From Gemmatimonadota bacterium (GTDB lineage Bacteria > Gemmatimonadota > Gemmatimonadetes > Longimicrobiales > Gaopeijiaceae), in the NCBI GenBank assembly GCA_022823365.1, contig JAJDXG010000052.1, positions 1 to 49,950 of the forward strand: DNA of 49,950 nucleotides, given 5' to 3'. A program made the translations under genes and the position numbers. The notes beneath the pieces are model-generated. The model did no database searches and had not been told where the DNA came from. It saw only the letters and a list, made by a program, of their open reading frames with translations. This document shows positions 3,973-39,734 of the stretch, piece by piece; the stretch's first letter is position 1, and every line of letters starts with the position of its first letter.

Positions 3973-5573
3973 CGTCCCCTCCCCCGCCGCCCTCGCCCGA
4001 GATCGGCGAGCACGGTGCCGGCGGCGAGCTTCCCCGGCGCGCCCATGATGCCGCCTCCGGGGTGCGTCCCCGAGCCGCACTGGTAGTAGCCCCGCACCGG
4101 CGTGCGGTATTTCGCGTACCCGGCGGCCGGACGGAGGAAGAAGAGCTGCGACGGGCTCAGCTCGCCCTGGAAGATGTTGCCCTGCGAGAGCCCCGTGGTG
4201 CGCTCGATGTCCAGCGGCGTGAGCACCTGGCGGTGCAGGATGATGTCCTTCAGATTCGGGACGAAGCGCGCAAGCGTGTCGACCACGGCATCGCCGAAGG
4301 CCTCGCGCCTGCCGTCCCAGTCCCCCTCGCGCAGCTCGTAGGGTGCGTACTGGACGAAGCACGACATGACGTGCTTGCCGGGCGGCGCCATCCCGGGATC
4401 GATCGCCGAGGGGATGACGATGTCGATGTAGGGTTCCTTCGAGTAATCCCCGTACTTCGCGTCGTCGTAGGCGCGCTCCAGGTAGTCGAGCGAGGGGCTG
4501 ATGGAGACGGCGCCCCGCAGATGCGGGCCCCATCCGGGCATGCAGGTGAAGTCGGGGGCGGCGTCGAGCGCCAGGTTGACCTTGCCGGAGGAGCCGCGAA
4601 AGCGGAACGCGCGCACCGCGCGGACCAGCTCGCCCGGGAGCTCATCCTCTTCGAGCAGGTCGAGGAAGGTGCGGCGCGGGTCCAGGCTGGACGCGACCAC
4701 CTTGCCGTGCACCTCGTCCCCGTTGGCCAGAGCCACCCCGGTCACGCGGCCGTTCCGGACCAGCACCCGGGCGACCGGCGCATCGGTGCGGATCTCGGCG
4801 CCCGCCTCGCGCGCGGCCGACGCAATCGCCTCCGCGACCGCCCCGGTGCCGCCCTTGGCGAAGCCCCACGCCCGGAAGTGGCCGTCGATCTCCCCCATGT
4901 AGTGGTGGAGCAGGACGTAGGCGGTACCCGGCGAGCGCGGCCCCAGGAAGGTCCCGATGATCCCGCTCGCGGACAGCGTGGCCTTGAGCACGTCGGTCTC
5001 GAACCACTCGTCCAGGAAGTCCGCCGCGCTCATCGTCATCAGCTTCACGAGCAGGTGAAGCTGTTCGGGCTCGAGCCCCAGGAAGTGCCGGGCAAGGCGG
5101 ATCAGGCCCGAGATGTCGCTAGGCCCCAGGCGGGCGGGGTCGGGCGGGACGATGTCGAGCAGGTACTTCACCGCGCGCGCCATGAAGAAGAGCGACCGGC
5201 CGTAGTCGTCGTACGCCTCGGCATCGCGCACCGAGAAGCGGGCGATCTCGCGCCAGGTGCGGTAGTGGTCGCCGTCGCGGTAGAGCCGGTCGCCGTCCGG
5301 GAGCGGCGTGAGCGTGCTCTCGAGCGGCAGGATGGTGAGCCCGTGCCGGGGCAGGTCCAGCTCGCGGATGATCTCCGGGCGCATCAGGCTCACCACATAG
5401 GAGAACACGCTGTAGCGGAACCCCGGGAAGATCTCTTCGGTGACCGTGGCGCCCCCCACCAGCGGACGCGCTTCGAGCACGCACACGTCCAGCCCCGCGC
5501 GCGCCAGATAGGCCGCGTGCACCAGGCCGTTGTGCCCGCCGCCGATCACGATCGCGTCGTAGCTGCGCGCCAT
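3969..5573 (-). CDS. NAD(P)/FAD-dependent oxidoreductase, PYROXD2 / phytoene-desaturase-like (first copy)
   Basis: A 534-residue flavoprotein with the dinucleotide motif GGGHNG at residues 11-16 followed by VCVLEAR. The C-terminal motif YYQCGSGTHPGGGIMGAPG is characteristic of PYROXD2-like FAD oxidoreductases. ATG at 5573 has GGAG nine bases upstream. It lies 67 bp after the GcvT-like gene at 5641-6834 and overlaps the next oxidoreductase by 4 nt. The pair may form a heteromer, as coupled paralogues often do; this is inference. No transmembrane or signal segment is visible, so a cytoplasmic location is expected. Carotenoid desaturation is an alternative, but no crtB-like or other carotenoid gene is nearby. 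Confidence 0.85.
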   Translation of the reverse strand: MARSYDAIVIGGGHNGLVHAAYLARAGLDVCVLEARPLVGGATVTEEIFPGFRYSVFSYVVSLMRPEIIRELDLPRHGLTILPLESTLTPLPDGDRLYRDGDHYRTWREIARFSVRDAEAYDDYGRSLFFMARAVKYLLDIVPPDPARLGPSDISGLIRLARHFLGLEPEQLHLLVKLMTMSAADFLDEWFETDVLKATLSASGIIGTFLGPRSPGTAYVLLHHYMGEIDGHFRAWGFAKGGTGAVAEAIASAAREAGAEIRTDAPVARVLVRNGRVTGVALANGDEVHGKVVASSLDPRRTFLDLLEEDELPGELVRAVRAFRFRGSSGKVNLALDAAPDFTCMPGWGPHLRGAVSISPSLDYLERAYDDAKYGDYSKEPYIDIVIPSAIDPGMAPPGKHVMSCFVQYAPYELREGDWDGRREAFGDAVVDTLARFVPNLKDIILHRQVLTPLDIERTTGLSQGNIFQGELSPSQLFFLRPAAGYAKYRTPVRGYYQCGSGTHPGGGIMGAPGKLAAGTVLADLGRGRRGRGR

Positions 5574-5640
5574 CGAGTTCAGCTCCGGGCCGGGGAGCGT
5601 GCGAAGGCAGGAGTTGCGACGGGGGCGATGCTCACTGTCT

Positions 5641-6834
5641 TCATGCGCGCTTGCGCGCGGGATCGAAGAAGGGGGTCTCCACGACCGTGGCCGGCACCTC
5701 GTGGCGCACGAACTCGACGGTGAGCTCGAAGTCCACCCGTCCGCCGGGACGGGCGAAATCGCGCTGCAGCGTCGCGAGGGCGATGTACTTCTTGAGGATG
5801 GGCGAGAAGGTGGAGCTGGTCACGAACCCGACCTGGGCGCCGGCGGCGAAGATGGGCACCGGCTCGCGCGATGCCTTGCCAGCCACCAGCGGAGGCAGTC
5901 CCACCGAGGCGAAGCGCCGCTCGATGCGCGGCCAGTCGACCTCGAGGCCCGCGAAGGCCCACTTGGAGGGTCGGGCCGCTTCCCGTTCGAGCGCCCTTCT
6001 GCCCACGAAGTCGCGTCCGGGCCGGGGCTGCACCGCCCATCCCAGACCGGCCTCGTAGGGAGACGACTTGCGCGACTCGATGAGCGCAGTCCAAGCCGAC
6101 ACGTAGTCAACTTCCTTGAGCAGGAGCCCGGCCTCGATGCGGGTCACGTCGAGGGCGTCGAGGCCGGCCGGCGCAATGCCGTACCCCCGGCCCGTCTCCA
6201 TGAGCGCGTCCCAGAACTCGAGCGCATGGTCGGGGCGCACCCAGAGCTCGTATCCCAGATCACCCGTGTAGCCGGTCCGCGTGATCGTGACCGGGATCGA
6301 TCCCACGGCGCCCTTCGCAAGTCCGAAGTACGGGAGCGACGCAATGTCCGCACCGGTCACCAGCCGGGTCAGGATGTCGCGCGAGGTGGGCCCCTGCATG
6401 GCGAGTGCGGCCAGCTCGAGCGAGATGTCGCGCACGCCGGCGTCCATCCCGAGCCCGCAATCCTGAAACCAGCGCAGGCACGGATCCGCGGCCGTGACGC
6501 GGAAGCGGTCCACTTCCAGGCGCTGCACGGTGCCGTCGTCGATCAGTTTGCCCGCTTCGTCGCACCACGGGCTGTAGAGAACGCGCCCCTCCTGGCAATC
6601 GGCCACGTTGCGCGTGACGATGCGGTCCACCAGTGCGGCCGCGTCCGGCCCGGTGATCTCGTACTTGCGCAGGGGTGAGATGTCGAAGAGGGCCGCGCCG
6701 CTGCGCACCGCGTAGTACTCGTACTCGTGGCTCGGCTCGTAGCCGAGGGCGATGGCGTACCCGGACCAGTTGCGCCAGCGGCGGTGGTGGCAGAGCGTGG
6801 CGGTGCGCGGGTGGAAGGGTGTTTCGAGGAGCAT
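5641..6834 (-). CDS. GcvT-family aminomethyltransferase-like protein
   Basis: A 397-residue second GcvT-fold protein, only distantly related to the one at 1152-2300. Key blocks are LLETPFHPRTATL at the start, FDISPLRKYEITGPDA (residues 50-65), ALAMQGPTSRDIL near 145, TRTGYTGDLGYELWV near 185, and the folate-binding core VTRIEAGLLL near 225. It should transfer a C1 unit from an N-methyl or aminomethyl compound to tetrahydrofolate. ATG at 6834 starts the conserved LLxTPFHPRT block, which is why this start was chosen, although no strong ribosome-binding site precedes it. It lies 19 bp downstream of the histidine phosphatase gene and 67 bp upstream of the oxidoreductase pair. Confidence 0.82.
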   Translation of the reverse strand: MLLETPFHPRTATLCHHRRWRNWSGYAIALGYEPSHEYEYYAVRSGAALFDISPLRKYEITGPDAAALVDRIVTRNVADCQEGRVLYSPWCDEAGKLIDDGTVQRLEVDRFRVTAADPCLRWFQDCGLGMDAGVRDISLELAALAMQGPTSRDILTRLVTGADIASLPYFGLAKGAVGSIPVTITRTGYTGDLGYELWVRPDHALEFWDALMETGRGYGIAPAGLDALDVTRIEAGLLLKEVDYVSAWTALIESRKSSPYEAGLGWAVQPRPGRDFVGRRALEREAARPSKWAFAGLEVDWPRIERRFASVGLPPLVAGKASREPVPIFAAGAQVGFVTSSTFSPILKKYIALATLQRDFARPGGRVDFELTVEFVRHEVPATVVETPFFDPARKRA

Positions 6835-8216: not shown

Positions 8217-9268
8217 GCCTCGATCAGCATCATCGCGGCGGTGAATCCGGGGCCGAGCGAAGTGAGCAGGATGCGGCCCGTGGCGCCCGCTCGCAGGGCG
8301 CGTTCCAGGACGAACAAGGCCGTGGGCGCGGACATGTTTCCGTGACGGCGAAGGATCTCCCGGGAATGGATCAGGGCATCCGGGGGCAGGTCGAGCGCCT
8401 CCTCCAGGGCGTCGAGAACCCGCGCTCCGCCGGGGTGCGCGGCGTACACGTCGATCTGGCCCAGCGAGAGGTCGCGGGACTGGAGGAATCCCTCGACGGC
8501 GCCGCGAAAGCGCCGCCGGACGATGTCCGGGATGCTGCGCGAGAACAGGACGCCGAACTCACCCGCTTCGCCGAAGTCCCAACCCATGACATCCAGGGAG
8601 CCGGGCCAGGTGTACTCGCCCCAGTCCCGGACCGCCGGCCCCCGGCCCGACGTGCTCAGCACCGCGCCCGCCGCCCCGTCTCCGAAGAGCGCGGCCGCGA
8701 CGACGTTGCCCTTAGACGCGTCGTGCTTCTGGAATGTGAGCGTGCACAGTTCGACGGTGAGGAACAGGACGTTCAGTTCGGGTTCGGCCCGGCACATCGC
8801 GCCGGCACGGGCCAGCCCCAGCACTCCGCCCGCGCAGCCGAGACCGAAGATCGGCAGGCGCCGGATGTCCGGCGGTAGGCGCAGGCGATCGATGAGCAAT
8901 GCGTCCAGGGTGGGGGTCGCCAGGCCCGTGCTGGACACCACGACCAGTCCGCCCACCTCCCCCGGCTCCAGCCCGGCCTGGTCGAGACATCGTGCGGCGA
9001 CCTCTTCCAGGATCGCCAGCGAACACTCGATGTAGGCGTCGTTGCGTTCGGAGAAGGTGCGCGGCTGGCGATACCAGTCCAGCGGCATGGAGATCTGGCG
9101 GGAATCGATTCCGGCGTTCGCGTACACCCGCGCCATGCGGTCGAAGTTGGCAAACGAGTGCGAAAAGAACTCGTAGCCGAGGGGCACCAGCTCTTCCTGC
9201 CGGTACCGGTGCGGCGCGTGTCCGCTGGCCAGGGAGTTGAGGCGAACGGCGTTGTCGTGTGGCGGCAT
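8213..9268 (-). CDS. Type III polyketide synthase (alkylpyrone/alkylresorcinol synthase-like)
   Basis: A 351-residue thiolase-fold enzyme of chalcone-synthase type. The catalytic triad is visible: Cys145 in FGLGCAGG, His278 in AAHPGGARVL, and Asn311 in HGNMSAP. These enzymes condense a fatty acyl starter with malonyl-CoA units to alkylpyrones or alkylresorcinols. ATG at 9268 was chosen because GGGGAG lies four bases upstream; a GTG directly before it is too close to that site. It is coupled to the ICMT-type methyltransferase, forming a two-gene pathway for methylated phenolic or pyrone lipids. The beta-lactamase-like gene ends 10 bp upstream. Confidence 0.9.
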   Translation of the reverse strand: MPPHDNAVRLNSLASGHAPHRYRQEELVPLGYEFFSHSFANFDRMARVYANAGIDSRQISMPLDWYRQPRTFSERNDAYIECSLAILEEVAARCLDQAGLEPGEVGGLVVVSSTGLATPTLDALLIDRLRLPPDIRRLPIFGLGCAGGVLGLARAGAMCRAEPELNVLFLTVELCTLTFQKHDASKGNVVAAALFGDGAAGAVLSTSGRGPAVRDWGEYTWPGSLDVMGWDFGEAGEFGVLFSRSIPDIVRRRFRGAVEGFLQSRDLSLGQIDVYAAHPGGARVLDALEEALDLPPDALIHSREILRRHGNMSAPTALFVLERALRAGATGRILLTSLGPGFTAAMMLIEA

Positions 9269-9278
9269 CACTCTCCCC

Positions 9279-10247
9279 TCACCCGCCAGGCCTCCGCAAC
9301 CTCCGCTTGATCTCCGGGTCGACGCGCGTGCCGTACATGGTGATGCCGGACAGGCGCGAGAAGTAGTCGTAGGCCGCGGCCGACACCGCCTCCACGACCG
9401 CCCCGCCGTCGCCGCCGTAGTTCGACATCACCGAGATCACGTAGGGGCGGTCGGGCACGTCCACGAGGCCCCAGACGGTGGAGACCCCGGTGATCCCGCC
9501 CGGCTTGAACGCGATGGGCACGTTGCGGGGCACCGGGTTGCGGATCGGTCCGCCCTTGAAGATCTCGAGGATCTCGCGCACCCGTGCGCAGCCAGCCTCG
9601 CTCATCGGCAGATCGCAGCTCGCGATCCGCTCCATGATCAGCGCGGCGTCCCGGGGCGTGGAGAGGTTCTCGTTCCCGCGCGCAGATTCCTCCGGCTGGA
9701 TCATCTTGCGCTGCAGCAGGGTGTGCTCGGCCCCGAGCGAGGCGGAGAGGGCGTTCACCTCGTCCATTCCCATCTCGTCGATGAGCACGTTGGTCCCGGT
9801 GTTGTCCGAATACACGATCATGTAGATCGCATAGTCCTCCAGGGACAGCGACGCGCCCCCGTCGGTCAGGTGAAGCAGCACCCCGCTGCCGCCGGTGCGC
9901 ACCTCGTCAGTCATGTCGATGCGGCGACGCAGCAGCCCCGGCTCCTCCTCGGCCCGGCGGAAGAGTTCCAGCAGAATGGGGATCTTGATCGCGCTCGCCT
10001 GCGGGAAAACCAGCTCGTCGTTCACCCGGAAGCGATCCCCCGAGGTGAGATCGATGATATGCACGCCCGCGATGCCCTCATAGTCATCGACGATGCCTGC
10101 CAGCTCGGCCTGCAGCTTGCCGCGCAGAAGGGCGAGATGCTCCTCCTGGGCGGAGACCGGGGTGGTGAGGGAGAGGAAGAGCGCGGAAACGGCAAGGCCG
10201 AGGGCCATGCGGCAGGTGAGGATACGGTACGGCGGCAAAGGCGTCAT
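9279..10247 (-). CDS. Class A beta-lactamase-like exported serine hydrolase
   Basis: A 322-residue protein with a signal peptide ending near SAQ (31-34). Active-site motifs in order are SxxK as SAIK (85-88), SDN (147-149), an ExxN-like ENLS with Glu193 as candidate general base, and KPG (248-250) in the place of KTG. It fits the Beta-lactamase2 family, whose members are either true beta-lactamases or penicillin-binding-type hydrolases. The KPG variant and distance from well-known enzymes leave open whether it degrades beta-lactams. ATG at 10247 is preceded by AGGAGG. It acts in the periplasm. It lies between the polyketide synthase gene and the oxidase gene on the same strand. Confidence 0.82.
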   Translation of the reverse strand: MTPLPPYRILTCRMALGLAVSALFLSLTTPVSAQEEHLALLRGKLQAELAGIVDDYEGIAGVHIIDLTSGDRFRVNDELVFPQASAIKIPILLELFRRAEEEPGLLRRRIDMTDEVRTGGSGVLLHLTDGGASLSLEDYAIYMIVYSDNTGTNVLIDEMGMDEVNALSASLGAEHTLLQRKMIQPEESARGNENLSTPRDAALIMERIASCDLPMSEAGCARVREILEIFKGGPIRNPVPRNVPIAFKPGGITGVSTVWGLVDVPDRPYVISVMSNYGGDGGAVVEAVSAAAYDYFSRLSGITMYGTRVDPEIKRRLRRPGG

Positions 10248-10344: not shown

Positions 10345-11493
10345 TCAGATGCGCATCGCCGAGAAGACCGCCCGGTGTGCGGCCACGATGCGTTCCAGCG
10401 CCTCCCGGTTGGGCTCGAGCGACCACTCGCCGCGCTCGGAGGTTCCGCCCAGCACGATTCCGTCGCTGCGCGGCTGCATGTGGATGCCGAGGCCACCGCC
10501 GGAAACGGGGGCTCCGCCGAAGGTGCCGTAGGTCACTTCCGGCTGGGGGATGAGCACGGTCAGCTGTCCCTTGAGGGGGACCATCGTGCGGTCGCCGAAC
10601 AGGTCCCGCGCGCCCAGCCCGGTGCAGTTGACCACGACCGACTCCTCCAGCTCCACCAGTTCGCCTGGCTCGGTGAATTTGCGGATGACGATGCGCCCGC
10701 CGCGGTCCACTACGTCCCGCACCAGGGCATCGAGATAGATGGAGGGTTCGATGCGGATCTGGGTGCGCTGGGTCGCGTAGCGGGTTGCAAACGGATGTTC
10801 CCCGGGCCCTAGCAGCCTCGTTCCCGTGCGCAGGTGCGCGGGAAGCAGCGGCTCGGAGTCCCCTCCCCCGCCTCCCCGCGGGCGCGGCTCGTTGTCGCTC
10901 AGCGCATAGCTGTGGATCCACGACACCCCGTATCCCCGTCCGACGAGCAGTTGCAGCTGCCGGTAGGAAACCTCCGCGGCCTCGCGGAACTGCGCGTCCC
11001 AGGCGGGCGTGCGCAGGTCACCGTCGATGAGACCCGAGGTGGGGGTGAACCCCGCGAAGGACATGTTCGAGGTGGTGTTGGGGGGCACGTCCATCGTGTA
11101 GATGGTCACGTCGAAGCCGCGCCGCTGCAGTTGGCGTGCGGCGGTGAGGCCCGCGGCTCCGCAGCCGATCACGGCGGCCCGGCGGCTTTCGTGCTCCAGG
11201 GCCATCTCGGCAGCCATCGCCCCCGTGCCCCAGGAGAGCGACATCCCCGCTCCGCCGTGCCCGTAGTTGTGGATCACGGTGGTCTCGTCCAGCCGCTCGG
11301 CGCGCAGCAGGAAGCCCGCCGGGCGATGGGGGCGGAGGCCCACAGTCGTGCGGATGATGCGGTCCGGGTCCACGCGCACCGGCGCGAGCCGCAGCGGTGG
11401 CTGACCCGGTGCCGAAGAGCGCACCGCGCACGCACCCAGCCCGCTCCCGAGCAGGCCCAGGCCACCGATCTTCAGCAGCGTTCGTCGGTCCAT
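10345..11493 (-). CDS. Tat-exported FAD-dependent D-amino-acid-oxidase-like protein with permuted domain order
   Basis: A 382-residue protein that starts [11 protein letters not shown] and reaches GLGAC at 18-22, a twin-arginine signal with a lipobox. D-amino-acid oxidases normally begin with the FAD Rossmann motif and end with a VGLRP...HNYGHGGxG block. Here VGLRPHRP (51-58) and HNYGHGGAG (75-83) come first. The FAD motif [17 protein letters not shown] (106-122) follows, and the substrate part ([31 protein letters not shown]) fills the C-terminus. This looks like a circular permutation, still able to form one fold. ATG at 11493 is five bases after GGAG; an adjacent ATG at 11496 is too close. 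It is probably anchored outside the cytoplasmic membrane. Confidence 0.78.
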
Positions 11494-33975: not shown

Positions 33976-35844
33976 TCAGGAGCCGCCCTCGCCCAGCGCC
34001 TGTGCGAGCGCCGCGCGGCCCCCCACCACCGGCAGATCGAGGGCCGTCGCCGCCAGGTCGACGGTCAGCCGGGTGCCGGGACCGGGGTGGAGGGTGAAGT
34101 CGGCGTCGCTGGAGAAGATCATGAGCCCGATACGCTGGCCGGCCGGGATGATCTGGTCGTCGGGCTGAAGGTCGAAGGCGAGATCGACGAACTCGCCCGG
34201 GACAAGTGGCGTGCTCTCGGTGAGCGAGACCGCGTTCTGCGGATCGGCCCAGCCGCGCGTGATCAGGTTGTCGTTGATGCTGGCGCCCTCCGACCAGGGA
34301 AGCGATACCAGCCAGACCGACAGGTTGGCGGCGGCGCGGTCGGCGGCGAGGCGGAGGGAGACGCGGGCAACGCCGGACAGGTGCACGCCTTCCGCGAACT
34401 CGGGCGTCGCGAACAGCAACCGGTGCTCCGAGGCCTCCGCCCCGGCCAGGTCGGCGCCGGAGAAGCTCACGTCATCGGTGAGCGATTGCTCCCCGGCGGC
34501 GGGATCGGGCTCGAGCGAGAGCATCCCCTGCATCCCTCCCTCGCCGGACGGGTGCATGCGCACCGGCTCCGCGTCGGGGTTGGGATAAGAGGGATAGGGC
34601 GTGGGGCTCAGGCGGTCGTCGCCCTCCCGCACGATCCACGCGCCCGGATCGTTCTCCACTCCGTTCTCGATTCCGTACAGATACCGGGAGAACCAGCGGT
34701 TCATGAGGGTGAGCGGTGGCTCGCCCCCGTGGCCCTGCTGGTGGTAGTACACCTGCACCGGCACGCCCCGGTCGCGTAGCGCCGCCACAATGCGGTAGCT
34801 GTGCTCGGGCATCACGTTCCAGTCGTTGAATCCGTGCGCCATGAGCGTCGGGGCGCGCACGCCGTCGACGTGGTTGAGGTAGTCGCGCCCAGCCCAGAAG
34901 TCGTTGTAGTCCCCGGAGGCGCGGTCGAAGCGCGCCTGCATGAGGTCGCTGCGCACAGTCTGGTTGCAGTAGTCGCGCCGCTCCATCGGGCCGCTGTTGA
35001 TGAAGTCGTAGAGGACGTCGATGTCCTCGCCGGGGTAGCCGCCCGGCGACCGCACCAGCCCATGTGACCGGTAGTAGTGGTAATACGACGTGTTGGGGGC
35101 CACCGGAATGATGGCCTCGAGCCCCTCCACGCCCGTGGTGGCGGCGGCGAGCGGCAGGGTGCCGTTGTAGGAGGTGCCGATCATGCCCACGCTGCCGGTG
35201 GACCAGTAGGCGCTCACCTCCTCCCCGCCCTCGACCTCGGTGAAGCCGCGCGCGCGCCCGTTCAGCCAGTCGATCACCGCCTTGGGGGCGAGGGACTCGT
35301 TCTCGCCGCCCACCGTGGGGCAGCCCTGTGACTGTCCCGTCCCGGGGGACTGCGAGTGCACCACCGCGAACCCGCGCGGCACCCAGGTGGCGATGTGCGA
35401 GTTCGAGATGACCGGCTGCTCCTCGATGTGGTCCATCGGGGGCATCACGGTGCGCGGCGGAGGCGGCGCGCCCACCTCCTGGCGGATGTCCCAGAAATAG
35501 CTGAAGTCGAGGCCACCGGTACCGGAATAGTACGGGCTGGTCTCGTAGATCACTGCGACCTCGAGCCCGGACTCGGTCGCGGCGGGGCGGGTCACGTCCA
35601 CATGCACCCGGTCGGGAGCGCCGTCGCCGTCGGAGTCGAAGTCGGTCTCGACCCAGAGTTCGTGCCGCACCCAGGTGGCCGAATCCGCGAACTCCGGGAC
35701 GACCTGCGCCTCGCCGTCCTCGAAGACGGGCCGGGGACCGTCGTAGCAGGCCGCGGCTGCGAGCAATGGCAGGGCGGTGCCGAGTGCGCATGCCCGCGCG
35801 ACGCGGGGAGGATTCGAGCGGGAGAGGGGAAAGATGTTCTTCAT
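33976..35844 (-). CDS. CocE/NonD-family (Xaa-Pro dipeptidyl-peptidase-like) lipoprotein hydrolase
   Basis: A 622-residue alpha/beta hydrolase of the S15/CocE type. The leader ends in LLAAAAC, a lipobox with cysteine 33. The triad is Ser225 in GTSYNG, Asp341 in HGFNDWNV, and His372 in QQGHGG. A C-terminal jelly-roll domain (about 430-600; FSGADLAG, VHLSGVARVSLRLAADRAAANLSVWLV) is typical of Xaa-Pro dipeptidyl-peptidases and cocaine-esterase relatives. It should cleave peptides or esters outside the cytoplasm. It starts 49 bp away from the left repeat of the tRNA-Ala island, so the island inserted next to it without cutting it. Confidence 0.9.
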   Translation of the reverse strand: MKNIFPLSRSNPPRVARACALGTALPLLAAAACYDGPRPVFEDGEAQVVPEFADSATWVRHELWVETDFDSDGDGAPDRVHVDVTRPAATESGLEVAVIYETSPYYSGTGGLDFSYFWDIRQEVGAPPPPRTVMPPMDHIEEQPVISNSHIATWVPRGFAVVHSQSPGTGQSQGCPTVGGENESLAPKAVIDWLNGRARGFTEVEGGEEVSAYWSTGSVGMIGTSYNGTLPLAAATTGVEGLEAIIPVAPNTSYYHYYRSHGLVRSPGGYPGEDIDVLYDFINSGPMERRDYCNQTVRSDLMQARFDRASGDYNDFWAGRDYLNHVDGVRAPTLMAHGFNDWNVMPEHSYRIVAALRDRGVPVQVYYHQQGHGGEPPLTLMNRWFSRYLYGIENGVENDPGAWIVREGDDRLSPTPYPSYPNPDAEPVRMHPSGEGGMQGMLSLEPDPAAGEQSLTDDVSFSGADLAGAEASEHRLLFATPEFAEGVHLSGVARVSLRLAADRAAANLSVWLVSLPWSEGASINDNLITRGWADPQNAVSLTESTPLVPGEFVDLAFDLQPDDQIIPAGQRIGLMIFSSDADFTLHPGPGTRLTVDLAATALDLPVVGGRAALAQALGEGGS

Positions 35845-35892: not shown

Positions 35893-35936
35893 GAATGGAG
35901 CCAGCCGGAATCGAACCGGCGACCTCCTGCGTGCAA
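35893..35936. repeat. Left attachment-site repeat (att), 44-bp copy of the tRNA-Ala 3' end
   Basis: Identical over 44 bp to 39659-39702, which covers the last 41 nt of the tRNA-Ala gene and 3 bp beyond it. It is not a complete tRNA: the rest of the anticodon arm, the D-arm and the 5' acceptor strand are absent here. It marks the outer border of the island. Confidence 0.85.
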
Positions 35937-36222
35937 GAACTCGGGACCGACGGGACGGAGAACACCGCCGGTGGCCCAAGTTACTCGGCACATCGTGGGG
36001 AAACAACGCGGATGCAGCCAAGCCTCCGGTTATCGACCTCCCGCTCGTTACGCTCACCAGATTCTCCAGGCGGGGGCAGGTCCTCTGCCGACCGGGTCCA
36101 CGAAACCACGCCGTGGCATCACACCCGACTTGAGAGGCTTTGCGGGCATCCGGTAGATTGCACCTGCGACCAACTGAGATTGATCGCCGCCGCGATGGCG
36201 GTAGCACCGCAAGGAGTTGTAG
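35937..36222. other. Left end of the island, no gene recognised
   Basis: Together with 35845-35892 this is a 378-bp stretch without a gene. The 48 bp before the repeat are host flank. The 286 bp after it show no convincing coding pattern on either strand, and no recombinase or excisionase remnant. AAGGAG just before 36223 is the ribosome-binding site of the first cargo gene. Confidence 0.45.
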
Positions 36223-36513
36223 ATGGTAGCCACAGAGGCCGTCCAGGCGGCAAAGGACTACATCCTGGAGCTCTTTCAAGATGAAAAAATCGCCCGTGTT
36301 GGCCTGGAGGAGCTCGAATTCAGGGCCACAGACGAGATGTGGGAAGTAACGATCGGGTTTGAGCGCCTTTGGCATTCCGACTCGCCCGCTCGACTAGGCA
36401 CCGTCCTTCTCGCTCCGCTGGCGAAGCCTCGCCGAACCTACAAGACTGTCTGTGTTCGCGACGATGGGACGATCGTTTCCCTGAAGCACCGCGATGTCTC
36501 CGTCCCGGCCTGA
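36223..36513 (+). CDS. Small protein of unknown function coupled to a PIN-domain gene
   Basis: A 96-residue soluble protein, mostly charged. The N-terminal part (VQAAKDYILELFQDEKIARVGLEELEF) is probably helix then strand, followed by an immunoglobulin-like or split beta-barrel-like run (WEVTIGFERLW, RTYKTVCVRDDGTIVSLKHRDV). No known antitoxin DNA-binding motif is visible. AAGGAG stands ten bases before the ATG. Its 3' end overlaps the PIN gene by 20 nt, so the two should be translated together. This is the arrangement expected of a toxin-antitoxin or effector-adaptor pair, but that function is inference. Confidence 0.7.
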   Translation: MVATEAVQAAKDYILELFQDEKIARVGLEELEFRATDEMWEVTIGFERLWHSDSPARLGTVLLAPLAKPRRTYKTVCVRDDGTIVSLKHRDVSVPA

Positions 36514-36994
36514 CGGAAATCCTCCGGACGGTGTCTTCGTCGACGCCAACCTTCTGGTGCTACTCGTCGCGGGGGCGCTGGATCCTGACATCATCGCGCG
36601 GCACCGGCGGTTGCGGACGTTCGGTCCCGAAGACTTCGAACGAGTGCAGGAGATGGTAAGCGGCTTCGAGCGCGTTCTGGTCACGCCCAACACGCTCACG
36701 GACGCGTCGAATCTCCTGGGGCAGCATCGGGAGCCGGAGAGATCCCGGCTGTTCAAGACTCTCCGCATCCTGATCGGCGAAAGCCATGAGGTCGTCGTGG
36801 CCAGCGCCGATGCGGCCGGGCACCCGTCCTTCTCCCGACTCGGCCTGACCGATGCGGGGCTGCTGGGTCTCGTGTCACGGGACACGCCACTCGTCACCGT
36901 GGACCTCGACCTCTACCTTGCCGCGTCGCGGGCGGATCCGTCCTCAGCCGTCAACTACCGCCATCATCAAGAGCGGTACGCTCGATCCAACTGA
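36494..36994 (+). CDS. PIN-domain-like protein (putative nuclease)
   Basis: A 166-residue protein with a PIN-type arrangement of acidic residues: Asp17 in VFVDANLLVLLV, a threonine/aspartate pair in PNTLTDASNLLG near 74-85, Asp in GLTDAGLL near 124, and VDLDLYLA near 140. These acid clusters coordinate metal for RNase activity in VapC-like and other PIN proteins. It is larger than typical VapC toxins (about 130 residues). It overlaps the upstream gene by 20 nt. A DUF262 restriction-type gene follows 106 bp later. Cleavage of tRNA or mRNA upon phage attack is a reasonable inference, not seen. Confidence 0.68.
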   Translation: MSPSRPDGNPPDGVFVDANLLVLLVAGALDPDIIARHRRLRTFGPEDFERVQEMVSGFERVLVTPNTLTDASNLLGQHREPERSRLFKTLRILIGESHEVVVASADAAGHPSFSRLGLTDAGLLGLVSRDTPLVTVDLDLYLAASRADPSSAVNYRHHQERYARSN

Positions 36995-37100
36995 TTCCAA
37001 CCGCCCCTCTCAGACGCTGGAACAATCCGCTCCGGCTCCTCGGCACTCGTCCCCGGCGAGGCGCAAAGCCAATCTGCATAACCCTCGAACGAGACGGCTA

Positions 37101-39581
37101 TTGGATACCCGACACATTGCTTTTCTTGAGCTCTTCAACTCCCAGGTGCAATACGTGGTGCCCCGCTGGCAGCGGAGGTACTGCTGGGGTCAGGCCGACA
37201 TCGAGAGGCTGATCAAAGACCTCGTGGCCATCGCGAAGGCACCGGACGGCTCGAGAGCGGCGCATTACGGCGGTACCCTGCTTACATTCCCAGAGTCGAG
37301 TGCGGTGCAACCAGTCACCGTTCACCGAGTCGTTGATGGTCAGCAGAGGCTCACGACGGTCAGCATTCTTCTTGCCTGCATCGCCGAGGTACTCGGCCCC
37401 GATGGACGATGCCGAGGCTGGACCGCCAAGACCATCAGGAACGACCGGCTCACGAATCCCGAGAAGCCCCCCGACAGATTTCGGAAGCTGCGGTTGCAGG
37501 ACGGAGATGAAGAGGAATACCGATCTGGACTCGAAGGTAATCCGGATGGGCCAGGCGCGGTTGCCCAAGCTTGGAGGACTGCGCGAAGGCAGGTGCGACG
37601 ATACGACATCGCTGAACTCCTCGCGGGACTCGAACGGTTTCGTGTGGTCAGCATCGGTCTGAAGGAGTACGACGATCCCCAACAGATTTTCGAGAGCCTG
37701 AACGCGACAGGGCGACCGTTAGCCGAGAGCGAGAAGCTCAAGAACTGGCTGCTGATGGCTCTGCCGGATGGGGAGCAGCAGGAGCTATACGACCGCCACT
37801 GGAAGCGGATAGAGGTCTCGCTTGATGCCGAGTACTCGACGGACCCGATCGACACTTTCCTTCGGGATTTCTTGCGTTGGAAGACCGGTGAACTGCGTGG
37901 CGTCAGGCACGTCTACGAGGATCTGCGACGGTGGGCCGTAAAGAACGGCAAGGCTGAGAATCGTAAGGCCCTATGCTCCCAGCTAGCGGATCTTGCCGTC
38001 CACTACGGCGTGCTCATGGGTACCGGCGGACCTCACGACGACAAGAACGTTGAACGTGAGCTGCGGCATCTGAGGGCAATGGGGTTTGATACCCATCGCC
38101 CTCTGACCCTTCGCCTGCTCCACGAAGCGGATTCGGCCCAAGGCGTTGGGTGGACTGACGCGATGCTGGCGAAGGCTTACGCAGGTATCGGGACATGGGC
38201 AACCCGGTTCTGGCTTTCCGACCGCCCGATGGCCGGGATGAATAAGGCGTTCGCCGAACTTGCCCACGGGCCCGGCCCGACAGGTCACGATGATCCCGCT
38301 GAATTCTGGCTGGGACGGATCCGAAGATTTCGCAACTCACGCGTAGAAGTGCCCGACGACGAGGCGGTGCGAGGCGGAATCCGCAATCGAAAGGCTTACG
38401 GCGCGAGTGCAACGCGTGTCACCAAGGCGGTCCTCTGCGCGATGATGGAGTCGGAGCAGCGCGGCGATTCCCCCGCACGTGATGACCTCACGGTCGAGCA
38501 CGTGATGCCGCAGAAGCTGACAGACGAATGGAGGTTGACGTTAGGAGATGATGCCGATCGGATTCATGATTGGTATCGCGACCGACTCGCAAACCTGACG
38601 CTGAGCGGAGTTAACTCGGAACTGGGATCGAAGCCATTTGAGGAGAAGCGAGAAATTATGAAGCGCAGCGGTATCCTTTTGACCAGGGTAATCGCAGACG
38701 AAGATGCCTGGAACGAAGCGGCCCTGGAACGGCGTGCCGAAGATCTCGCGGACCAAGTGCTTAGGCTCTGGCCCTGGTCGGATCCCGACGCGCACGCCCG
38801 CAACACACCAACTGGCACGTGGCGGATGAGATGGCGCATTGAGGAAGGCGACTGGCACGAGGAAAGCGCAGCAAGTCAGATGGTGCTCAACGTCGCCGGA
38901 GCGCTTCTCACCCGCGATCCTAAGAACGCCGAGCGACTACGGGGTGACGCCCTCTCCACGACCTTGCAGATGGCAAGCCAGTACCCAGCCGGTAGCAAGG
39001 CCCGGAGCCTCACCATGCGGGCCGTACCCGGGCACGATTCCTTCGTTATGTATCCTTACGCGCGGGACTACCCGACGAGCGCTGCACGGTGTCGAGAAAT
39101 GGGAGACCGATGCGGGCTCCCGGTCGAGATCGAATTCCCAGACACGCCGGATACGATCAAGGCGTTTTGGGAGTTTCTCAAAGCGCAAACGGGAGGTCTG
39201 CCAGGTCAGTCTGACGAGTGGCGTAGTTGGAATTGTTGGACGACCGGGCTCAACGAGGCCGGTGACATGATTGGTGTCAGTCTCGCCGAAGATTGGATGG
39301 GCATCTACCTCAGGGCCTCCGAGTACCAAGACACGCCCAAGCGAGCCGAGCGCATGCTGCAGTACTCCCGTAAGATTCGCGAGCTGATGGGAGACCAGGA
39401 ATTCGATGGGAATGAGGCGTCACGGAGCAGGAAGGGGAGGAGTATCACGGTTCGGCGCGCTTGGGACCGCAACGACGGGGACGGATGGCCGACATCAGCG
39501 CGGTGGATCAAGGACCAAGCGGATCGGCTGCAGGCCATCGCCCAAGCGCTTGCTCCGATCCAGGAGAAAACGACCGGCTAG
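37101..39581 (+). CDS. DUF262/DUF1524 (GmrSD-like) type IV restriction-type protein with C-terminal DUF4268-like domain
   Basis: An 826-residue protein. Residues 1-300 form a DUF262 domain: VVPRWQRRYCWGQADIERL (19-37) and the nucleotide-binding ParB-like DGQQRLTTV (79-87). A DUF1524 HNH-type nuclease follows with E466-H467 in TVEHVMPQKL and the trailing NLTLSGVNSELGSKPF. The C-terminal part (about 720-826; WRSWNCWTTGLNEAGDMIGV, WMGIYLRASEYQDTP) resembles DUF4268. GmrSD-like proteins cleave modified phage DNA using NTPs. TTG 37101 was chosen because the family starts at this point (DTRHIAFLELFN); the longer open frame upstream overlaps the PIN gene and is not family-like. Confidence 0.85.
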   Translation: MDTRHIAFLELFNSQVQYVVPRWQRRYCWGQADIERLIKDLVAIAKAPDGSRAAHYGGTLLTFPESSAVQPVTVHRVVDGQQRLTTVSILLACIAEVLGPDGRCRGWTAKTIRNDRLTNPEKPPDRFRKLRLQDGDEEEYRSGLEGNPDGPGAVAQAWRTARRQVRRYDIAELLAGLERFRVVSIGLKEYDDPQQIFESLNATGRPLAESEKLKNWLLMALPDGEQQELYDRHWKRIEVSLDAEYSTDPIDTFLRDFLRWKTGELRGVRHVYEDLRRWAVKNGKAENRKALCSQLADLAVHYGVLMGTGGPHDDKNVERELRHLRAMGFDTHRPLTLRLLHEADSAQGVGWTDAMLAKAYAGIGTWATRFWLSDRPMAGMNKAFAELAHGPGPTGHDDPAEFWLGRIRRFRNSRVEVPDDEAVRGGIRNRKAYGASATRVTKAVLCAMMESEQRGDSPARDDLTVEHVMPQKLTDEWRLTLGDDADRIHDWYRDRLANLTLSGVNSELGSKPFEEKREIMKRSGILLTRVIADEDAWNEAALERRAEDLADQVLRLWPWSDPDAHARNTPTGTWRMRWRIEEGDWHEESAASQMVLNVAGALLTRDPKNAERLRGDALSTTLQMASQYPAGSKARSLTMRAVPGHDSFVMYPYARDYPTSAARCREMGDRCGLPVEIEFPDTPDTIKAFWEFLKAQTGGLPGQSDEWRSWNCWTTGLNEAGDMIGVSLAEDWMGIYLRASEYQDTPKRAERMLQYSRKIRELMGDQEFDGNEASRSRKGRSITVRRAWDRNDGDGWPTSARWIKDQADRLQAIAQALAPIQEKTTG

Positions 39582-39658
39582 CTGTAATCCGTCGGAGGAC
39601 CTCGCCCAAAAAGGCAGGGGTCAAGGGGCGGGAACTCCGCCTCCCAAGCGCGACGTTC

Positions 39659-39702
39659 GAATGGAGCCAGCCGGAATCGAACCGGCGACCTCCTGCGTGC
39701 AA
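39659..39702. repeat. Right attachment-site repeat (att) inside tRNA-Ala
   Basis: Perfect partner of 35893-35936. It includes the last 41 nt of the tRNA-Ala gene plus 3 bp downstream of it. Cross-over anywhere in these 44 bp would restore the tRNA after excision. Confidence 0.85.
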
Positions 39703-39734
39703 AGCAGGCGCTCTCCCGACTGAGCTATGGCCCC
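39662..39734 (-). tRNA. tRNA-Ala (anticodon TGC)
   Basis: A 73-nt cloverleaf on the minus strand. The acceptor GGGGCCA pairs with TGGCTCC and contains the G3-U70 pair that is the alanine identity element. D-loop AGCTCAGTCGGGAGAGC, anticodon loop CTTTGCACG (anticodon TGC), and T-arm GGTTCGATTCC are canonical. The discriminator is A, and CCA is not encoded. Its 3' 41 nt serve as the attachment site of the adjacent island. Confidence 0.97.

What the first reader, a model, noticed from the sequence alone, without database searches (positions are those of the whole stretch)
35893..39702. Compact tRNA-Ala island carrying a PIN pair and a DUF262/DUF1524/DUF4268-like restriction protein, without an integrase
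Seen: a perfect 44-bp direct repeat, one copy in the 3' end of an intact tRNA-Ala, and cargo of three genes in 3.8 kb with codon use unlike the flanks. Known: DUF262 plus DUF1524 proteins (GmrSD, BrxU, SspE) are nucleases against modified phage DNA. Inference: this is a minimal satellite-like defence island that moves with an integrase in trans, or a remnant.
Basis: partly seen in the sequence, partly recalled or inferred. Interest (0 to 1): 0.78.

Follow-up and report, generated by a model that had tools for sequence, protein, structure and literature searches.

The report
Old tRNA island with swapped defences
A small stretch of foreign DNA sits in a bacterial tRNA-Ala gene; it entered the lineage long ago, carries no insertion enzyme of its own, and related species hold different toxin-antitoxin or anti-virus genes at the same spot, so it is a mostly ordinary but unusually readable case of bacteria restocking their defences.

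Summary
A perfect 44-bp repeat flanks 3.7 kb of lower-GC DNA with three open genes; 41 bp of the repeat are the 3' half of an intact tRNA-Ala(TGC).

Relatives explain it. G006 (same genus) has the exact empty site. G001, G003, G005 and G008 have the same displaced tRNA fragment and the same ~85-bp left end, but other cargo (BrnT/BrnA, HepT/nucleotidyltransferase, lipoproteins). The left end is 92-94% identical to G001, G003 and G005, roughly as diverged as the flanking genes, and G006 nests inside the occupied clade. This points to one old, inherited insertion with cargo turnover and a precise loss in G006, rather than a currently moving satellite. No tyrosine integrase was found in the insertions or near this tRNA in 18 relatives.

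The cargo is composite. The small gene and PIN-like gene are orphans of an Hma (DUF499, BREX-related) operon: they lie between HmaB and HmaC in intact relatives, and a decayed HmaB tail remains. The third gene is an intact single-chain GmrSD (type IV restriction) protein, weakly DUF4268-like at its end.

Verdict: a remnant tRNA defence island, a new member of a known kind. The best thread is that the pair recurrently outlives its Hma operon.

The parts
35893..35936 (-). Displaced 3' half of tRNA-Ala (outer copy of the 44-bp repeat)
   Evidence: Perfect repeat; same distance from the hydrolase gene in G001, G003, G005, G008, and continuous with the single tRNA in the empty site of G006
35937..36022 (.). 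Left end of the insertion, shared by five species with different cargo
   Evidence: 92-94% identical to G001, G003, G005 and 78-84% to G008
36057..36130 (+). Decayed 3' tail of an HmaB (DUF1156 methylase) gene
   Evidence: DNA alignment to HmaB tails scores 36-48 against a shuffle maximum of 26; a similar remnant is in G008
36223..36513 (+). Small gene, 96 aa, predicted cystatin/NTF2-like fold; partner of the PIN-like gene
   Evidence: Conserved beside the PIN-like gene in other genomes; model pLDDT 83, fold matches
36494..36994 (+). PIN-like nuclease gene, 166 aa, with D in place of the near-invariant E at position 70
   Evidence: Conserved D17, E/D70, D120, D137; purifying selection
36995..37054 (+). 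Possible remnant of the HmaC gene start (weak)
   Evidence: Above all shuffles against three of four relatives but by a small margin
37101..39581 (+). Single-chain GmrSD-type gene (DUF262-DUF1524, C-terminus weakly DUF4268-like)
   Evidence: Pfam above cut-off; full-length homologues at 79-81% and 55-60%; DNA module borders 37055-39541
39659..39702 (-). Inner copy of the 44-bp repeat, within the intact tRNA
39662..39734 (-). Intact tRNA-Ala(TGC)
   Evidence: ARAGORN

Best explanation
This is an old genomic island that entered the 3' half of tRNA-Ala(TGC) by site-specific recombination, probably with a tyrosine integrase, in an ancestor of the genus. It left an intact tRNA at one border and a 41-bp displaced tRNA half at the other. 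No integrase remains. The island has since been inherited mainly vertically while its cargo was eroded and replaced, and one lineage (G006) returned exactly to the empty site by recombination across the repeats. Shown: repeat, empty site, shared left end, nested empty lineage, cargo differences. Inferred: integrase type, single origin, mode of loss. In this genome the cargo has two layers. The small gene and the PIN-like gene are the orphaned middle of an Hma operon (shown by synteny in relatives and by a decayed HmaB tail). A GmrSD-type gene lies beside it, not original to that operon. Its likely action is NTP-dependent cleavage of modified phage DNA by the DUF262 and HNH-type DUF1524 domains (inferred from the family). 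The small/PIN pair most likely works like a toxin-antitoxin RNase pair or backup effector (inferred).
For: Repeat and tRNA. Empty site in G006 with 91-94% identical flanks. Same fragment and left end with other cargo in four species. Flank tree puts G006 with G003 and G005 at 98% support; a clade of the four nearest carriers without G006 is rejected, p-AU 8e-7. Hma synteny, erosion and HmaB remnants. PIN-gene remnants in G003 and G005. Module borders of GmrSD. No integrase, with the positive control found.
Against: Nearby non-coding flank (80-88%) is less conserved than the left end, so repeated arrival of one element family is not excluded. Five genus members have other genes at the tRNA and no repeat. 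All genomes are drafts; the G006 junction could in principle reflect strain mixture.
Confidence: 0.72

Rival explanations
1. A minimal element, still mobile, that inserts into tRNA-Ala and is excised by an integrase supplied in trans; the five occupied species reflect separate arrivals of one element family with different cargo.
For: Same end sequence with different cargo; precise empty site in G006; left end better conserved than the adjacent non-coding flank; many tyrosine recombinases in each genome.
Against: Left-end divergence roughly follows the flanks; decayed Hma pieces are shared between species at the site; the left end is not seen elsewhere in 121 genomes of the family except one weak 47-bp match; no exact 35-bp att core in viral contigs; no helper identified.
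Confidence: 0.2
2. G006 is primitively empty or received an empty allele, and the other species gained the island separately.
For: Only one empty species was found in the genus; draft genomes.
Against: G006 nests inside the carriers and its flanks show no sign of import.
Confidence: 0.12
3. The repeat is a by-product of tRNA duplication unrelated to the cargo.
For: Other tRNA-like fragments exist in this genome, for example on contig C6.
Against: In all five occupied sites the fragment is exactly at the cargo border, and the empty site has one tRNA copy only.
Confidence: 0.03

Closest known systems
tRNA-borne defence hotspots of genomic islands (E. coli survey, PMC10121019)
   Same: tRNA target, variable defence cargo at one place, presence in only some genomes
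   Different: Here no integrase or other mobility gene is left and much of the history looks vertical; very small size
Hma system, also called DUF499-centred BREX-related system (PMC8565338, PMC12839542)
   Same: The small/PIN pair lies between HmaB and HmaC of complete Hma loci in related bacteria
   Different: In the window HmaA and HmaC are gone and HmaB is a decayed tail; the published definition is three genes without the pair, though PIN nucleases are noted as less common backup effectors
GmrSD type IV restriction enzymes, single-chain form (PMC4619093, PMC4437046)
   Same: DUF262 and DUF1524 in one chain with DGQQR and EHVMP-type motifs; DUF4268 is a known C-terminal addition
   Different: About 265 extra C-terminal residues only weakly matched to DUF4268; substrate unknown
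Phage satellites and hitcher elements such as PICMI (PMC10803314, PMC11389934)
   Same: Small and site-specific; satellites often carry defence genes
   Different: Satellites normally carry an integrase and replication or packaging functions; none here

Membership tests
tRNA-integrated genomic island | Direct repeat of the tRNA 3' half at both borders | tested here: met
   44-bp perfect repeat, 41 bp in the tRNA
tRNA-integrated genomic island | Empty site with one intact tRNA in a relative | tested here: met
   G006
tRNA-integrated genomic island | Own integrase | tested here: not met
   No integrase family among the three window proteins or in the insertions of relatives; hence called a remnant
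GmrSD type IV restriction enzyme | DUF262 (GmrSD_N) and DUF1524 (GmrSD_C) domains above cut-off | tested here: met
   92.7 and 77.5 bits against cut-offs 33.2 and 23
GmrSD type IV restriction enzyme | Conserved DGQQR and HNH-type motifs | tested here: met
   Invariant in the alignment of nine homologues
GmrSD type IV restriction enzyme | Cleavage of modified DNA | not testable with these tools
   Needs a bench assay
Hma / DUF499 BREX-related system | HmaA helicase, HmaB methylase and HmaC ATPase together | tested here: not met
   Only a decayed HmaB tail and perhaps the HmaC start remain; the window holds orphans, not an Hma system
PIN-domain nuclease | Four acidic motif positions | tested here: inconclusive
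   Conserved in the family, but the window protein has D for E at position 70 and no PIN profile passes its cut-off
Type II toxin-antitoxin pair | Two small overlapping genes kept together | tested here: met
   20-bp overlap; pair conserved across several phyla
Type II toxin-antitoxin pair | Toxicity relieved by the partner | not testable with these tools
   Needs expression tests
Phage satellite or mobilizable island moving in trans | Evidence of transfer or excision with a helper | tested here: inconclusive
   Precise loss in G006, but no att core in viral contigs and no helper identified

The most novel reading that the evidence does not exclude
The small/PIN pair is an addiction-type guard of Hma operons that is kept longest after the helicase, methylase and ATPase genes decay (intact orphans in the window, L030 and L032), and the tRNA island acts as a long-lived, integrase-less dock that is repeatedly restocked with such pairs.
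Probability: 0.22. Interest if true: 0.6.

Novelty: new member of a known kind. Interest (0 to 1): 0.38.

Why it matters
It is a compact case in which the history of a defence island can be read across one genus: probably one insertion, several sets of replaced cargo and one exact loss. It also shows a five-gene form of the Hma locus with an embedded small/PIN pair that is not in the published three-gene definition and that recurrently outlives the rest of the operon. Whether that pair is an addiction guard or a backup effector of Hma is directly testable.

Tried and rejected
Integrase in trans: no exact copy of a 35-bp att core in viral contigs; no integrase near this tRNA in relatives. Earlier integrase scans with home-made queries were not trusted: and most queries were frames of doubtful identity, one profile missed its positive control and another found it only weakly; only the Pfam scan with a working control is used. 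That scan looked at frames of 260 aa or more nearest the tRNA, and only 25 of 96 families were listed, so other recombinase types are not ruled out.

Contig C6 as a helper site: its tRNA-like fragment belongs to another tRNA, so not pursued.

GmrSD plus PIN pair as one system: rejected, since the 79-81% GmrSD homologues have no PIN gene within the roughly 1.5 kb of flank held on each side.

Structure of the GmrSD protein: model too poor to search (pLDDT 49.5). By sequence its solved relatives are DUF262 proteins, SspE and a DUF1524 domain. The small protein gave only cystatin/NTF2-like matches, too common a fold for a functional inference. The PIN profile found nothing useful in the PDB. Two Pfam calls failed on coordinates.

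Full report
OBSERVATION. The window is a whole contig (G000:C7) of a 3.8-Mb draft genome. The perfect 44-bp repeat is exactly where stated. ARAGORN finds one tRNA in the window, tRNA-Ala(TGC), 39662-39734 minus. The repeat covers the tRNA from the anticodon loop to its 3' end plus 3 bp and is unique in the genome as a pair. The enclosed 3.7 kb has the lowest GC of any stretch of that size sampled in the contig (61.5% against 68.0%). Codon use is atypical for the small gene and the GmrSD gene but host-like for the PIN-like gene.

EMPTY AND OCCUPIED SITES. The gene to the left (33976-35844, a CocE/X-Pro-peptidase-like hydrolase by my own reading of its sequence) and the genes to the right are conserved in the genus. 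In G006 the hydrolase start and the tRNA are 51 nt apart with nothing between; flanks are 91-94% identical. In G001, G003, G005 and G008 a 40-45-bp tRNA fragment lies at the same distance from the hydrolase, then cargo, then the intact tRNA. The cargo is BrnT/BrnA in G001 and the same pair by sequence in G008; a HepT-like gene and a nucleotidyltransferase in G003; lipoprotein-like genes (my reading) and an ECF sigma factor in G005, which is split between two contigs. G004 has HicA/HicB-type genes and a truncated BrnA by sequence; G002, G009 and G010 have similar genes; G007 has a BrnT-like remnant. None of these five has the repeat.

ONE OLD INSERTION. After the fragment all five occupied sites share about 85 bp, seen nowhere else in 121 genomes of the family save one weak 47-bp match. 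Identity to the window is 92-94% for G001, G003 and G005 and 78-84% for G008; flanking DNA is 90-92%. The flank tree places G006 with G003 and G005 (98% support), and a clade of the four nearest carriers without G006 is rejected (p-AU 8e-7). The simplest history is one insertion before these species split and an exact loss in G006. Caveats: the non-coding flank is less conserved (80-88%) than the left end, five species lack the repeat, and all are draft assemblies.

CARGO LAYER 1: THE SMALL GENE AND THE PIN-LIKE GENE. The two overlap by 20 bp. Homologues at 84-90% occur in genomes labelled Gemmatimonadetes and in single ones labelled Gammaproteobacteria and Rhodothermales; 56-58% homologues occur in genomes labelled Nitrospira, Dehalococcoidia and Alphaproteobacteria. 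In L028, L029 and L033 the pair lies between HmaB (DUF1156 methylase) and HmaC (DUF499 ATPase) of a complete Hma set. The window keeps a decayed HmaB tail upstream (alignment scores 36-48, shuffle maximum 26) and so does G008 (41-53, maximum 28). A remnant of the HmaC start is only suggestive. G003 and G005 keep 29-40 bp of the start of the PIN-like gene. The pair shows purifying selection (dN/dS 0.14-0.26 for PIN, 0.15-0.31 for the small gene), although these are pairwise values that include time spent inside an operon. The window protein alone has D instead of the near-invariant E at motif position 70, which may reduce activity. In L030 and L032 the pair also stands beside eroded Hma genes, while in L129 HmaB and HmaC stretches surround only a 44-residue remnant of the PIN-like gene. 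PIN endoRNases are described as less common backup effectors in BREX and DUF499 systems (PMC12839542); Hma was defined as three genes (PMC8565338).

CARGO LAYER 2: GmrSD. The protein has GmrSD_N and GmrSD_C above cut-off, with DGQQR and EHVMP-type motifs conserved in nine homologues. Full-length homologues are 79-81% identical in two genomes of another genus and 55-60% in others; the two closest have no PIN gene or tRNA in the flanks held. DNA similarity to those two loci starts at 37055 and ends at 39541, giving clean module borders. DUF4268 at the C-terminus is weak (E=0.11) but is a known addition in this family (PMC4619093). Action on modified phage DNA is inferred from the family (PMC4437046, abstract).

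INTEGRASE. A Pfam scan of 106 frames from the insertions and from the neighbourhood of this tRNA in 18 other-genus relatives finds no tyrosine integrase, while the positive control, an integrase on contig C6 of this genome, is found. Every genome of the genus has tyrosine recombinases elsewhere, so help in trans cannot be excluded.

MECHANISM. Shown: target, repeat, empty site, module borders, remnants. Inferred: tyrosine-integrase insertion, because the repeat begins in the anticodon loop, a usual crossover place in tRNA genes (general knowledge); loss of the integrase; restocking by recombination; loss in G006 by recombination across the repeats. Nothing shows current mobility.

CONCLUSION. 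A real, well-bounded and mostly ordinary remnant tRNA defence island with a readable history. The orphaned Hma-associated pair is the thread worth following.

Noticed in passing
35937-36022: The left end is more conserved between species than the neighbouring non-coding DNA. It lies upstream of the hydrolase gene that the insertion separated from the tRNA, so it may now serve as that gene's promoter region.
   Followed up: no
L151 (G000:C6), 5149-6309 and about 11402-11432: A tyrosine integrase of 386 aa, a second integrase-like stretch (8660-9352) and a tRNA-like fragment of another tRNA (looks like tRNA-Thr) lie within 7 kb: probably a second, decayed tRNA island in this genome.
   Followed up: partly
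L028, L029, L033: A five-gene form of Hma: HmaA, HmaB, small gene, PIN-like gene, HmaC.
   Followed up: partly
L099-L103 and G005:C23: Two DUF262/DUF1524 genes side by side (about 565-680 aa each) in several relatives.
   Followed up: no
L129 (G034): HmaB and HmaC stretches with only a 44-residue remnant of the PIN-like gene between them: the reverse of the orphan pair.
   Followed up: no
G001:C63:2526-3409: A second copy (83% identical) of the tRNA-Ala and downstream gene region in G001; duplication or contamination.
   Followed up: no
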